Part shown: piece by piece, positions 6,098 to 35,963 of the stretch
Position numbering within the stretch: position 1 is the first letter of the stretch
Layout: each line of letters starts with the position of its first letter
DNA from: Frankia nepalensis
Lineage (GTDB): Bacteria; Actinomycetota; Actinomycetes; Frankiales; Frankiaceae
DNA: 64,000 bases
Direction: 5' to 3'
Assembly: GCF_016786325.1 (NCBI RefSeq)
Contig: NZ_JADWYU010000082.1
Coordinates: 12,428-76,427, forward strand
Position numbers and translations under genes: made by a program
The notes under the pieces: model-generated
Told to the model about the DNA's origin: nothing
The model's database searches: none
Seen by the model: only the letters and a program-made list of their open reading frames with translations

Positions 6098-6546
6098 CTG
6101 AACACCCCCTGATGCCGAAGGCTGATACCGGAAGGAAGGCGCGCGATCGTCGCGGCGGGCCCGGACCGCGTCGAGGCACCCTATTGGTTCAGCTACCCAC
6201 CGTGTTCACTATGTCACCTGACGCTGTCGTTCTCACCCATGCCGGGGGGCGCCGTCCCGCTGGTTCCGTTGGACTGACTCCCCCGAGTTCGGTGGTCCGA
6301 ACCAGGTCCGAGCCGGAATCGTCAGAGATCCCGGCGTCCAAGGAGATCGTTGTGCCAGGGGCGCCTTGCCGGTGGTGTGCGGCGCCGCGTCCACGCTCTC
6401 ACCGTCGTGGCGGCTCGGCAGCGCGACCGCGCGGCCTATCCGGAACCGCCCAACCCGTCCGGGACACGCGAATCGTCAGCGGATACGTCATCCGGGTGGT
6501 CCGGGTGGCGGGCTGCCGGACGGCGGCGTCGTACCCTGCCCTCACC
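6098..6546. other. Intergenic region upstream of the Pro-rich protein gene
   Basis: The downstream frame stays open from 6112, but its translation here is Arg-rich and lacks protein-like features, and the Pro-rich protein most likely starts at ATG 6547. The stretch should contain the two divergent promoters; I could not assign them. Confidence 0.45.
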
Positions 6547-32666: not shown

Positions 32667-34655
32667 TCAGCCGCCCGCCGATGGCGCCGCTGACGGGCCG
32701 CCGGCGCAGCCGCCGAGGACGCGCAGCGTGCCCGTGCCCGGGAACTCGAAGGTCTCGGTCGGGCACCAGCCGGCGGCGCGCAGGTCGGCGAGTTCGGCGT
32801 CGGCGCCGCCGCGGTCGTAGACGAGCACGAACAGCAGGAGGCGCTCGGGTGCTGGCCCGGTGCGCGCCGCCAGGGCGGCCCGGGCCTCGCCCTCGCCGAC
32901 CGCCGTGAGGAAGAGCGTCGAGTCCTCGGGCAGGCGGGGGCCGGCCGGGGGCGCGGCGGCCGCGGGCGGCGGCAGGTAGGGGCCGTCGTCGCTGACGCCC
33001 GTCGCGTAGAGCCAGCCGGAGCGGGCCAGCCGGCCGCCGACCACGACGACGTCACCGGGCTGGTAAAGCCCGCGGGCGAGCGTCGTCGCGTCGACCATCA
33101 ACGCCACCGGCCGGATCTCGTGCCGCTCCCGCCACAGCGGCCACAACGCGCTCGCGGACGCCACCGGCGCCGCGGCGAGCACGACCAGCGCGCCCGCGAG
33201 GACGACCCGTCCGGCGGGGACGGCCCTCCAGGCCAGGGCGGTCGCCCGCCACCGGCCGCCCGGCGGGCGACCAGCGCCGGTCCCGTCCCCGGCCGCGGCC
33301 GGGGGTGCCCCGAGGAGGCGGGCCATCCGGTCGGCGCCGACCGCGACGACCGCGACGAGCAGGGGGACGAGAAAGGTGTTGGTGCGGTTGGCGCCGAAGG
33401 GCCAGTAGCGGCCCACGCTGGCGGCGAGAGCGATCAGGAGGGCGCCCAGCACGGCGACGAGCAGCTGCCGCCCGGCCCCCCAGGCGTGCGCCGGAGCCAT
33501 CGCCTGGGAGGCCGGGCTCCCCGCGCGGCCGCCGTCGGGATGGGTCAGCCGGCGCGCGTCACCGGGGTCGCGCATCGGCTGACCGATCTTGTCGAACCGG
33601 TGGAGCGCGACCACGCCGAAGGCGAAGGCGAGGGCGGCGGCGGGGGCGAGCAGCCACGCGGCGGCGAAGGTGGCGTCGGTCGCGGGGTGGACCAGGTTCG
33701 GGTCGTAGCGGTCCACGCCCGTCGGCGCGCCGCCCAGGATCCTGACCAGCTCACCGGCGACGAACCCGACCGCGTCCAGCGGCCCGCGGCCGGCGAGGAA
33801 CTGGGTGTCCCAGAACCGGCTCGCCCGCTGGCTCGACTGGTGGCCGATGAACAGGGCGGTGTGCAGCCCGCAGATCGCCAGCGCGGGCGCGGCGGTCAGC
33901 GCCGCGCGGGCCCGGGGCCGCCACCCGCGGCCGGCGGCGACGACGTCGCCGGCCGCCAGCGGAATGATCAGGAAGGCGGCGGGCACGGCGAACAGCGAGA
34001 CGGCACCGGCCGTCGTCCTGGCCACTGTGGGGCGCCGCGCGGCGCCCCACAGCCAGACGACGGCGAGGGCGGCGAGCGCCTCGACGGCGTAGGGCTTGAG
34101 CTGGGTTCCGAGGTCGACGACCACTCCGGACAGCCCGAGCGACGCGGCCGCCAGCCCGGCCGCCGCCGGGCCGGTGAACCGGCGCACGAAGGCGTAGGCC
34201 ACGGCCGGGAGCGCCACCAGGGCCACCAGTTCGGGCAGGCGCAGCGCCCAGGCGTGCCAGCCGGCGACCTCGCCGACCAGCCTCGTCAGCGCGGCCCAGC
34301 CGAGGGCAGACGGGGTGTTCGCGTGCGCGAGCTCCGACCAGAACGTCGCCGCCGGCTCGGCGAGGAAGTGGGGCCGCCAGATCTCGTCGTACCAGAGCGG
34401 TCGGTCGAGCACCGCGCGCAGCGCGACCAGGGCGGCGACGACGGTGGCGGCGAGCGCCGCCGGCACCGCGAGGTCCACGACCTTCCGGGGGCGCGGCCGG
34501 TGCCGGGCCTGGCCGGCGAGCGGCCCGGCGGTGTCGCGATCCGTGACCTCGACCCCGGATGGTTCGTCATCCGGGGTGTCCACGGCCGTCACGGCGCGTA
34601 GCGGTTCGTTCGACGCCGCGGGGCCGGTGTCCACAGTTGAAGGCGAGTTATCCAC
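32667..34655 (-). CDS. Multi-span membrane glycosyltransferase (GT39/GT-C-like)
   Basis: A 662-aa membrane protein. After a 65-residue hydrophilic lead come about ten hydrophobic segments. The first outer loop has LWYDEIWRPHF, with the Asp-Glu pair that GT-C enzymes use for metal and acceptor, and TQLKPYAVEAL follows in the next loop; both are typical of the GT39/GT83 mannosyl/arabinosyltransferase-like group using polyprenyl-phosphate sugars. The C-terminal 150 residues form an extracytoplasmic domain. GTG 34655 lies inside a DnaA-box-like 9-mer and has no clear ribosome site, so the start is uncertain. Substrate unknown. Confidence 0.75.
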   Translation of the reverse strand: MDNSPSTVDTGPAASNEPLRAVTAVDTPDDEPSGVEVTDRDTAGPLAGQARHRPRPRKVVDLAVPAALAATVVAALVALRAVLDRPLWYDEIWRPHFLAEPAATFWSELAHANTPSALGWAALTRLVGEVAGWHAWALRLPELVALVALPAVAYAFVRRFTGPAAAGLAAASLGLSGVVVDLGTQLKPYAVEALAALAVVWLWGAARRPTVARTTAGAVSLFAVPAAFLIIPLAAGDVVAAGRGWRPRARAALTAAPALAICGLHTALFIGHQSSQRASRFWDTQFLAGRGPLDAVGFVAGELVRILGGAPTGVDRYDPNLVHPATDATFAAAWLLAPAAALAFAFGVVALHRFDKIGQPMRDPGDARRLTHPDGGRAGSPASQAMAPAHAWGAGRQLLVAVLGALLIALAASVGRYWPFGANRTNTFLVPLLVAVVAVGADRMARLLGAPPAAAGDGTGAGRPPGGRWRATALAWRAVPAGRVVLAGALVVLAAAPVASASALWPLWRERHEIRPVALMVDATTLARGLYQPGDVVVVGGRLARSGWLYATGVSDDGPYLPPPAAAAPPAGPRLPEDSTLFLTAVGEGEARAALAARTGPAPERLLLFVLVYDRGGADAELADLRAAGWCPTETFEFPGTGTLRVLGGCAGGPSAAPSAGG

Positions 34656-34712
34656 AGGTCTTGTCCACAGGCTGCGTACGACTGTGGAAATCCCCTTCCA
34701 AGGTGTGGACGA
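34627..34712. promoter_or_regulatory. Cluster of DnaA-box-like 9-mers
   Basis: Five 9-mers within 86 bases end in TCCACA or its complement: GTGTCCACA (34627-34635), TTATCCACA (34648-34656, perfect E. coli-type box), TTGTCCACA (34661-34669, perfect actinobacterial-type box), and on the other strand TGTGGAAAT (34683-34691) and TGTGGACGA (34704-34712). They cover the start of the glycosyltransferase and the gap to the aminotransferase start side. No origin genes (dnaA, dnaN) are nearby. Confidence 0.6.
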
Positions 34713-34721
34713 CGCCTTCGG

Positions 34722-35963
34722 CTAGCCCTGCGAGTAGGAGGCGAGGAAGTGGTCGATCCGGCCGATGGCGTGGGTGAGGTCGTCGACGTTGGGCAACGTG
34801 ACGATCCGGACGTGATCGGGCCTCGGCCAGTTGAATCCGGTGCCCTGCACGAGCAGGATCTGCTCCGCTCGCAGCAGGTCGAAGACGAGCTGCTCGTCGT
34901 CGCGGATCGCGTGCACCTCGGGGTCCAGGCGCGGGAACGCGTACAGCGCGCCCTTCGGCGGCACGCAGGACACACCGGGGATGTCGTTCAGCAGCTTCAC
35001 CACGGTGTCGCGCTGCTCACGTAGCCGGCCGCCGGGCAGCACCAGATCGGCCGCGCCGCCGTTGTGGTCGAGCGCCGCGACCACCGCGTACTGGCCGGGG
35101 ACGTTGGCGCACAGGCGCATGTTCGCCAGGATGTTCAGGCCCTCGATGTAGCTGGTCGCGTGCCCGCGCGGGCCGGAGACGACCATCCAGCCGGCGCGGA
35201 AACCGGCCAGCTGGTAGGCCTTCGACAGGCCGTTGAACGTCACGCAGACGAGATCCGGAGCGAGCGCGGCGGTCGCCACGTGCTCGGCGCCGTCGTAGAG
35301 GATCCGGTCGTAGATCTCGTCGGAGAAGACCATCAGGTTGTGCTGGCGGGCCAGCTCCACCAGCGCCTCGACGGTGGCCCGGTCGTAGACGGCGCCCGTG
35401 GGGTTGTTCGGGTTGATCAGGACGATCGCCCGGGTGCGCGGCGTGATCCGGGCGGCGACGTGCTCGACGTCGGGGAGCCAGCCGGCGGACTCGTCGCACA
35501 GGTAATGCACCGGCTTTCCGCCGCAGAGGCTGACCACGGCCGTCCACAGCGGGTAGTCCGGCGCGGGCAGCAGCACCTCGTCTCCGTCGTTGAGCAGCGC
35601 CTGCAGCGCCATCATGATCAGCTCGGAGACGCCGTTGCCGAGGTACACGTCGTCCGGCCCGACGCCGGCGACGCCCTTGTGCCGGTGGTACTGGGCGACC
35701 GCGGCGCGCGCCGCGGGCAGTCCCTTGGAGTCGCTGTAGCCCTGTGCGCTCGCCAGGCTGGTGACGACGGACGCGAGGATCTCCGGCGGGGTCGAGAAGC
35801 CGAACGGGGCGGGATTGCCGATGTTCAGCTTCAGAATCCGCTGGCCGGTGGCCTCCATCCGGTTCGCCTCGTCGAGGACGGGGCCTCGGACGTCGTAGCA
35901 GACGCCGGCGAGCTTGTCGGACTGGGTGAACTCCATGCCATCCAGGGTAGGCATGTCGTCCAC
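34722..35963 (-). CDS. Alanine-type aminotransferase (class I, AlaA/AlaT-like)
   Basis: PLP-dependent aminotransferase of 413 aa. The N terminus SDKLAGVCYDVRGPVLDEA and KLNIGNPAPFGF are typical of the AlaA/AlaT group that makes alanine from pyruvate and glutamate. The PLP Lys lies in FNGLSKAYQLAGFRAGW; NPNNPTGAVY and FSDEIYDRI are also present. GTG 35963 is the longest start; ATG 35954 and ATG 35936 (MEFTQSDKLAG) are alternatives, and the last matches homologue length best. It lies upstream of the membrane glycosyltransferase on the same strand with the DnaA-box cluster between. Confidence 0.9.
   Translation of the reverse strand: MDDMPTLDGMEFTQSDKLAGVCYDVRGPVLDEANRMEATGQRILKLNIGNPAPFGFSTPPEILASVVTSLASAQGYSDSKGLPAARAAVAQYHRHKGVAGVGPDDVYLGNGVSELIMMALQALLNDGDEVLLPAPDYPLWTAVVSLCGGKPVHYLCDESAGWLPDVEHVAARITPRTRAIVLINPNNPTGAVYDRATVEALVELARQHNLMVFSDEIYDRILYDGAEHVATAALAPDLVCVTFNGLSKAYQLAGFRAGWMVVSGPRGHATSYIEGLNILANMRLCANVPGQYAVVAALDHNGGAADLVLPGGRLREQRDTVVKLLNDIPGVSCVPPKGALYAFPRLDPEVHAIRDDEQLVFDLLRAEQILLVQGTGFNWPRPDHVRIVTLPNVDDLTHAIGRIDHFLASYSQG

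What the first reader, a model, noticed from the sequence alone, without database searches (positions are those of the whole stretch)
34627..34712. Five DnaA-box-like 9-mers in 86 bases away from any origin genes
One perfect TTATCCACA, one perfect TTGTCCACA and three near matches lie together over the start of a membrane glycosyltransferase. Such clusters outside oriC act as DnaA-titration sites (datA), reactivation sites, or DnaA-regulated promoters.
Basis: partly seen in the sequence, partly recalled or inferred. Interest (0 to 1): 0.5.

Follow-up and report, generated by a model that had tools for sequence, protein, structure and literature searches.

The report
Conserved DnaA-box cluster near oriC
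A short patch of binding sites for the replication-starter protein DnaA sits between two genes of a Frankia-type soil bacterium, is kept in many of its relatives roughly 80-120 kb from the replication origin, and probably soaks up DnaA to help time chromosome copying, as similar patches are reported to do in Streptomyces and Bacillus.

Summary
The five boxes are real: 34627-34712, two perfect (TTATCCACA, TTGTCCACA), two with one mismatch, one with two. 0 of 400 simulated windows had even three (<=1 mismatch) in 86 bp. 'Away from any origin' is misleading: in all 14 family genomes where the adjacent aminotransferase gene and dnaA share a contig they lie 79-124 kb apart; synteny suggests about 145 kb or more here. 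The cluster recurs past that gene's 3' end in 27 of 35 family genomes: 8/8, 13/13 and 6/6 in three genera, 0/8 in the other four. In the window's genus 32 of 36 columns of boxes 1-4 are invariant, against 12 of 80 other columns. It is one of a set: a relative's 320 kb around dnaA holds seven perfect boxes, all in five clusters; a 320-kb control holds none. Downstream of crgA, boxes recur across the class (one or more in 44 of 48 loci, two or more in 36). Best reading: an origin-proximal DnaA-titration cluster like those of Streptomyces and B. subtilis. DnaA control of the adjacent glycosyltransferase gene remains a live rival. No binding data exist. New member of a known kind.

The parts
34627..34635 (+). 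Box 1, GTGTCCACA (1 mismatch to TTRTCCACA); 6 of 9 columns invariant in the 8 genomes of the genus
34648..34656 (+). Box 2, TTATCCACA (perfect); contains the likely GTG start codon of the glycosyltransferase on the minus strand; 9 of 9 columns invariant in the genus
34661..34669 (+). Box 3, TTGTCCACA (perfect), 4 bp from box 2; 9 of 9 columns invariant in the genus
34683..34691 (-). Box 4, ATTTCCACA on the minus strand (2 mismatches); 8 of 9 columns invariant in the genus; a perfect TTGTCCACA at the matching place in 11 of 13 genomes of genus g6
34704..34712 (-). Box 5, TCGTCCACA on the minus strand (1 mismatch); least conserved (2 of 9 columns in 8 genomes; 6 of 9 without G007)
32667..34655 (-). 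Membrane glycosyltransferase-like gene downstream of the cluster (weak PMT_2 match, below Pfam's cut-off), probably translated from the GTG inside box 2
34722..35963 (-). Aminotransferase gene (Aminotran_1_2; called AlaT here for short); its stop codon lies 9 bp from box 5; anchor used to find the site in relatives

Best explanation
The element is a DnaA-binding cluster of the origin-proximal kind. DnaA binds the close pair of perfect boxes (2 and 3) cooperatively, together with the opposing box 4 and the weaker boxes 1 and 5. Because the cluster lies near oriC it is duplicated soon after initiation. It then removes free DnaA from the pool and, with the sister clusters near oriC, delays the next initiation. 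Shown here: the boxes, their selective conservation, the concentration of such sites around dnaA, and the distance to dnaA in relatives. Inferred: binding by DnaA, higher affinity than oriC (this genome's dnaA-dnaN intergenic region has no perfect box), and the effect on initiation.
For: Within the genus (8 genomes) 32 of 36 columns of boxes 1-4 are invariant, against 12 of 80 non-box columns within 60 bp either side of the start of box 2 (Fisher P 2e-14, columns treated as independent). Two or more boxes (<=1 mismatch) lie within 600 bp past AlaT in 27 of 35 family genomes. AlaT is 79-124 kb from dnaA in 14 of 14 family genomes that have both on one contig, of 22 examined for dnaA. Perfect boxes concentrate within 132 kb of dnaA: 25 of 47, 16 of 40 and 21 of 46 in three single-contig genomes of genus g6, against 1.6-1.9 expected each; leaving out the innermost 5 kb, 20 of 42, 10 of 34 and 16 of 41 (positions). 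G006 (own genus): 7 perfect boxes in 320 kb around dnaA, all in 5 clusters; 0 in a 320-kb control. Tandem perfect pairs occur in 34 of 35 family genomes, 0 for the reversed pattern in all 35; inverted pairs of one arrangement in 31 of 35, again 0 for the control. In genus g5 (one genome) a similar pair sits at the 5' end of a different gene (PGA_cap), 1.9 kb past AlaT, while the glycosyltransferase is on another contig without a close pair. In genus g3, which lacks the adjacent glycosyltransferase, two perfect boxes within 42 bp lie 2.5-3.2 kb upstream of AlaT in 4 of 5 genomes. The own dnaA-dnaN intergenic region has eight boxes with one mismatch and no perfect one. A paper's passage says B. 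subtilis and S. [quoted passage not shown]
Against: No DnaA binding or replication data exist for these organisms in what I saw. The exact position of the cluster coincides with an adjacent glycosyltransferase gene in all 35 family genomes (27 both, 8 neither), which a promoter role would also predict. No such pair was found near AlaT in genera g4 and g7 (one genome each) or in G009 of g3. In this genome the site is probably further from dnaA than in the 14 relatives: by synteny with G006 at least about 145 kb. Some close pairs lie far from dnaA: G002 at 419 kb, G012 and G029 at about 2.1 Mb. In E. coli a 4-bp gap between boxes binds poorly, 2-3 bp being preferred; here the gap is 4 bp. One review holds that the B. 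subtilis clusters play no significant role in initiation, the effect being strong only when all six were removed (PMC5295017 passages).
Confidence: 0.6

Rival explanations
1. DnaA-controlled expression of the membrane glycosyltransferase: DnaA bound between aminotransferase and glycosyltransferase blocks transcription or translation start (box 2 covers the likely start codon), coupling a cell-envelope gene to replication.
For: Both genes lie on the minus strand with a 66-bp gap. In the frames printed, an in-frame GTG sits in the box matching box 2 in 8 of 8 genomes of g1 and 8 of 8 of g6. Cluster position and adjacent glycosyltransferase coincide in 27 of 27 genomes.
Against: In g2 the in-box GTG is not regularly kept. 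In g5 the gene lies elsewhere without a close pair and a similar pair stands before another gene near AlaT; in g3 the adjacent gene is absent but 4 of 5 genomes have a perfect pair near AlaT. The paralogue near dnaA on C387 has no box with <=1 mismatch in about 4 kb upstream. Other clusters lie in different contexts, such as downstream of crgA.
Confidence: 0.21
2. A site that changes the nucleotide state of DnaA (datA-like hydrolysis or DARS-like exchange) rather than simply binding it.
For: A close pair plus an opposing box at a kept position; datA and DARS are also clusters outside oriC at defined positions.
Against: Those work with IHF or Fis; no such site was sought here. A 9-mer scan cannot show catalysis.
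Confidence: 0.08
3. A landmark for chromosome organisation or segregation around the origin that uses DnaA binding, unrelated to initiation frequency.
For: Clusters lie on both sides of dnaA; a parS-like 10-mer (GTTTCACGTG, motif recalled) occurs in the 4-kb AlaT loci of 6 of 6 g2 genomes and 3 of 13 g6 genomes.
Against: The 10-mer is in 0 of 8 loci of the window's genus and 0 of 8 of the other four genera; no structural data.
Confidence: 0.07
4. Chance cluster.
For: 9-mers are short.
Against: 0 of 400 simulations; found at the same place in 27 of 35 genomes; boxes more conserved than the columns around them.
Confidence: 0.01

Closest known systems
Streptomyces coelicolor DnaA-box clusters near oriC (Smulczyk-Krawczyszyn et al. 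2006; cluster names H69, H24, D78 recalled, paper not held)
   Same: Actinomycete; clusters of boxes close to oriC; cited as able to repress untimely initiation (PMC4585315 passage; similar in PMC10950094).
   Different: That any Streptomyces cluster corresponds to this site was not shown. Aminotransferase loci outside the family had no cluster (0 of 9 examined of 11 matches). The crgA-linked boxes do recur outside the family.
Bacillus subtilis oriC-proximal DnaA-box clusters (Okumura et al. 2012, not held; described in PMC5295017)
   Same: Several clusters outside oriC; removal of all six gives early initiation (passage).
   Different: Different phylum; strong effect only when all six are removed, and the same review says they play no significant role in initiation; positions not compared.
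E. coli datA
   Same: Five DnaA boxes outside oriC; negative regulator (passage).
   Different: datA is ~1 kb, works with IHF and promotes ATP hydrolysis; this site is 86 bp and no IHF site was sought.
E. coli DARS1/DARS2
   Same: DnaA-box clusters outside oriC.
   Different: They reactivate ADP-DnaA, DARS2 with IHF and Fis (passage); not testable here.
E. coli oriC-proximal enrichment of DnaA boxes
   Same: Enrichment of boxes around oriC, proposed to aid titration (PMC12371093, abstract and one section read).
   Different: There a broad density peak among about 900 loose motifs per genome; here a few discrete perfect-box clusters at orthologous places.

Membership tests
Origin-proximal DnaA-box cluster (Streptomyces / B. 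subtilis type) | Several DnaA boxes close together, beyond chance | tested here: met
Origin-proximal DnaA-box cluster (Streptomyces / B. subtilis type) | Lies outside but close to oriC | tested here: met
   79-124 kb from dnaA in 14 of 14 relatives with both on one contig. In the window's own draft not measurable; synteny suggests about 145 kb or more
Origin-proximal DnaA-box cluster (Streptomyces / B. subtilis type) | Bound by DnaA with high affinity | not testable with these tools
   Perfect boxes here and none in the own dnaA-dnaN region is only suggestive
Origin-proximal DnaA-box cluster (Streptomyces / B. subtilis type) | Deletion causes early or more frequent initiation | not testable with these tools
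   needs experiment
datA | IHF-dependent stimulation of DnaA-ATP hydrolysis | not testable with these tools
   biochemistry needed; no IHF site was sought
DARS | Regenerates ATP-DnaA from ADP-DnaA | not testable with these tools
   biochemistry needed
DnaA-regulated promoter | Boxes stay with the regulated gene when it moves | tested here: inconclusive
   27 of 27 clusters beside the gene, but in G011 the gene is elsewhere without a pair and a pair stands before another gene; one genome only

The most novel reading that the evidence does not exclude
Actinomycetes carry a standing constellation of discrete DnaA-box clusters on both sides of oriC at characteristic distances (in this family about 22-37, 36-62, 79-124 and 95-142 kb where measured), at least one of which (downstream of crgA) is kept across the class. 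Forks duplicate them at successive moments after initiation, so the set acts as a stepwise timer that withdraws DnaA.
Probability: 0.25. Interest if true: 0.7.

Novelty: new member of a known kind. Interest (0 to 1): 0.45.

Why it matters
DnaA titration by chromosomal sites has been debated for decades, mostly in E. coli; a 2025 paper reports evidence for it there (PMC12371093, abstract and one section). A small set of discrete, sequence-conserved clusters at orthologous places near oriC, in genomes with only 32-47 perfect boxes in all (7 genomes), offers a clean system: few sites, identifiable, deletable one by one. It extends the kind of cluster reported for Streptomyces to Frankia-type bacteria, and the crgA-linked boxes to 26 of 29 actinomycete families sampled.

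Tried and rejected
Chance: rejected. Remote from the origin: rejected for relatives. A general feature of this glycosyltransferase family: not supported, since the paralogue on C387 and the displaced gene in G011 lack a close pair. The same site outside the family: 0 of 9 aminotransferase loci, taken from 11 matches. A first guess that the right end of contig C33 faces dnaA was wrong: alignment to G006 shows that its left end does.

The original Streptomyces and B. subtilis papers are not held; passages of citing papers were used. Paper searches: Frankia + DnaA + oriC listed 5 papers, none by title on DnaA sites of Frankia (passages of one seen); crgA + DnaA box found two papers whose passages do not describe such a site; DnaA-binding sites / actinobacteria / ChIP-seq listed 9, none by title a DnaA map of an actinomycete (listing only). 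This does not show absence from print. No structure prediction and no RNA-family search was run, the element being a DNA site.

Rows dropped or chosen before counts: two crgA loci with cut flanks (L219, L223) were left out. The 48 crgA loci are the 30 loci returned of 117 genomes with a match (28 counted) plus 20 picked by hand for family spread. In one search only the three genomes fully listed were used; G001 is cut off in that listing and G002, G006 and G000 are not listed by place. dnaA was sought in 22 of the 35 family genomes.

Full report
What is there. At 34627-34712 five 9-mers resemble the DnaA box TTRTCCACA: GTGTCCACA, TTATCCACA and TTGTCCACA on the plus strand, then ATTTCCACA and TCGTCCACA on the minus strand. 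The two perfect boxes are the only perfect ones in the 64 kb. The window is 73.6% G+C; 400 first-order Markov simulations gave a mean of 0.13 perfect boxes and none reached three boxes with <=1 mismatch in 86 bp. TTGTCCACA is the high-affinity box listed for S. coelicolor, TTATCCACA for E. coli and B. subtilis (PMC4285127 passage).

Which organism. The genome is a 10.7-Mb draft of 398 contigs. The lengths of G012, G016 and G001 are ones I recall for Frankia alni ACN14a, Frankia sp. CcI3 and Frankia EuI1c; that is recall, not a call.

Surroundings. The cluster fills most of the 66-bp gap between an aminotransferase gene (34722-35963, minus) and the likely start of a membrane glycosyltransferase-like gene (32667-34655, minus), and runs past that start into the gene. 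The likely GTG start lies inside box 2; an in-frame GTG is found in the matching box in 8 of 8 g1 and 8 of 8 g6 frames printed, but not regularly in g2.

Conservation. In 35 genomes of the family, two or more boxes (<=1 mismatch) lie within 600 bp past the aminotransferase in 27: 8 of 8 in genus g1, 13 of 13 in g6, 6 of 6 in g2; 0 of 5 in g3 and 0 of 1 each in g4, g5 and g7. Outside the family it is 0 of 9 loci (9 of the 11 non-family matches were fetched). Within g1, boxes 2 and 3 are invariant at 18 of 18 columns, box 1 at 6 of 9, box 4 at 8 of 9, box 5 at 2 of 9, other columns at 12 of 80. In g6 and g2 the pair and the opposing box stay, with pair gaps of 2 bp (g6) or 4 bp (g2), while spacers vary.

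Position. dnaA was sought in 22 family genomes. In 14 it shares a contig with the aminotransferase, and the two are 79-124 kb apart, on either side of dnaA; in 8 they are on different contigs. The pair lies 111-122 kb from dnaA in G001, G002 and G006 (g1) and 80-84 kb in G012, G016 and G029 (g6). In the window's draft the site is on contig C33 and dnaA on C387. Aligned to G006, C387 runs from dnaA to -24.6 kb and then into a stretch inverted against G006 (-72 to -52 kb); C33 begins at -31 to -25 kb, then runs from -72 kb outward, with the site at -111 kb. So the left end of C33 faces dnaA, and the distance here is at least about 98 kb (dnaA to the end of C387) plus 47 kb (C33), about 145 kb, plus whatever lies between. 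This assumes that C387 continues towards C33. It is further than in the 14 relatives, but still about 1.5% of the genome. Three non-family genomes have both genes on one contig: G046 250 kb apart, G037 618 kb (first match), G051 1.0 and 2.4 Mb; no box with <=1 mismatch lies in their fetched loci.

A set of clusters. In G006 the 320 kb around dnaA contain seven perfect boxes, all in five clusters at -110.7 (this site), -41.4, -22.2, +1.4 and +123.9 kb; a 320-kb control region contains none. Seven permuted motifs gave 0-4 hits around dnaA and 0-8 in the control. In three single-contig g6 genomes 25 of 47, 16 of 40 and 21 of 46 perfect boxes lie within 132 kb of dnaA. Tandem and inverted perfect pairs are few, and their reversed-pattern controls are zero in all 35 genomes. 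Exceptions: G002 has a tandem pair 419 kb from dnaA, G006 one on its second contig, G012 and G029 a close pair about 2.1 Mb away; in the drafts many pairs lie on contigs whose place is unknown.

The sister at crgA. Own contig C93 carries TTATCCACA-4 bp-TTGTCCACA-2 bp-TGTGGATAG just past crgA. Of 48 crgA loci in 29 other families, 44 have at least one box (<=1 mismatch) within 250 bp downstream, 36 at least two and 30 at least one perfect box; 26 of 29 families have one. In 28 of these loci the density is 11.0 per kb there against 0.24 elsewhere, and nine permuted motifs reach 0-6 of 28 loci. Loci without any came from families f3, f25, f26 (one of two) and f36.

Titration or promoter. For the promoter rival: co-occurrence with the adjacent glycosyltransferase (27 of 27, and 0 of 8 without it), and the start codon in box 2. 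Against it: in G011 (g5) the gene is on another contig without a close pair, and a similar pair stands at the 5' end of PGA_cap 1.9 kb past the aminotransferase. In 4 of 5 g3 genomes, without the adjacent gene, two perfect boxes with gaps of 6 to 33 bp lie 2.5-3.2 kb upstream of the aminotransferase. Whether these are the same site moved or independent sites is not known. I prefer titration but do not exclude control of the gene; both could hold.

Known context. Passages state that B. subtilis and S. [quoted passage not shown] similar in PMC10950094). PMC5295017 reports that removal of all six B. subtilis clusters advances initiation, yet calls their role not significant (passages). E. coli DnaA prefers pairs 2-3 bp apart and loses binding at 4 bp in one tested site (PMC11317965 passages). 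That the Streptomyces D78 cluster binds DnaA more tightly than oriC, and that its deletion raises replication, is my recollection of the 2006 paper, which is not held. The own dnaA-dnaN intergenic region has eight boxes with one mismatch and no perfect one, which would fit such an affinity order.

Verdict. A real, conserved, origin-proximal DnaA-box cluster, a new member of a known kind. The most interesting part is the set to which it belongs and the class-wide crgA site.

Noticed in passing
L078 (own C93:7000-18598), pair at C93:12846-12867; L194-L223, L304-L323: DnaA boxes just downstream of crgA: one or more in 44 of 48 loci examined across the class, two or more in 36; possibly the Streptomyces H69 cluster (recall).
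   Followed up: partly
L079 (own C361), 6124-6150: Tandem perfect DnaA boxes about 0.1 kb upstream of recA (RecA by Pfam). Pairs with the same gap occur in G004, G005 and G006 (second contig) and related ones in G011, G014 and G017; the recA context was checked only in the own genome. Suggests DnaA control of recA.
   Followed up: partly
own C387:45935-45976; G006:C1:1388112-1388153: Three-box cluster about 24 kb from dnaA (22 kb in G006), syntenic; box clusters also at 31-37 kb in several g6 and g2 genomes.
   Followed up: partly
own C172:7950-7973; G001:C1:8756498; G002:C1:3447879: Inverted perfect box pair 43-62 kb from dnaA in four g1 genomes with dnaA on the same contig, with similar ones in g2 and g3.
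   Followed up: no
G012:C1:7432669-7432814; G029:C1:5692500-5692600: Arrays of four and three perfect boxes spaced 45-47 bp apart, 63-66 kb from dnaA.
   Followed up: no
L018, L024, L027, L030, L031, L065 (g2); L020, L025, L028 (g6): GTTTCACGTG, resembling part of a parS site (motif recalled), occurs in these AlaT loci; close to the DnaA-box cluster in the five g2 sequences printed.
   Followed up: no
own C387:26737-28728: A paralogue of the glycosyltransferase lies about 5 kb from dnaA; similar copies lie near dnaA in several relatives.
   Followed up: no
own C33:1-6678 and C387:48649-68994 against G006: An inversion of roughly 25-72 kb from dnaA separates this genome from G006.
   Followed up: no
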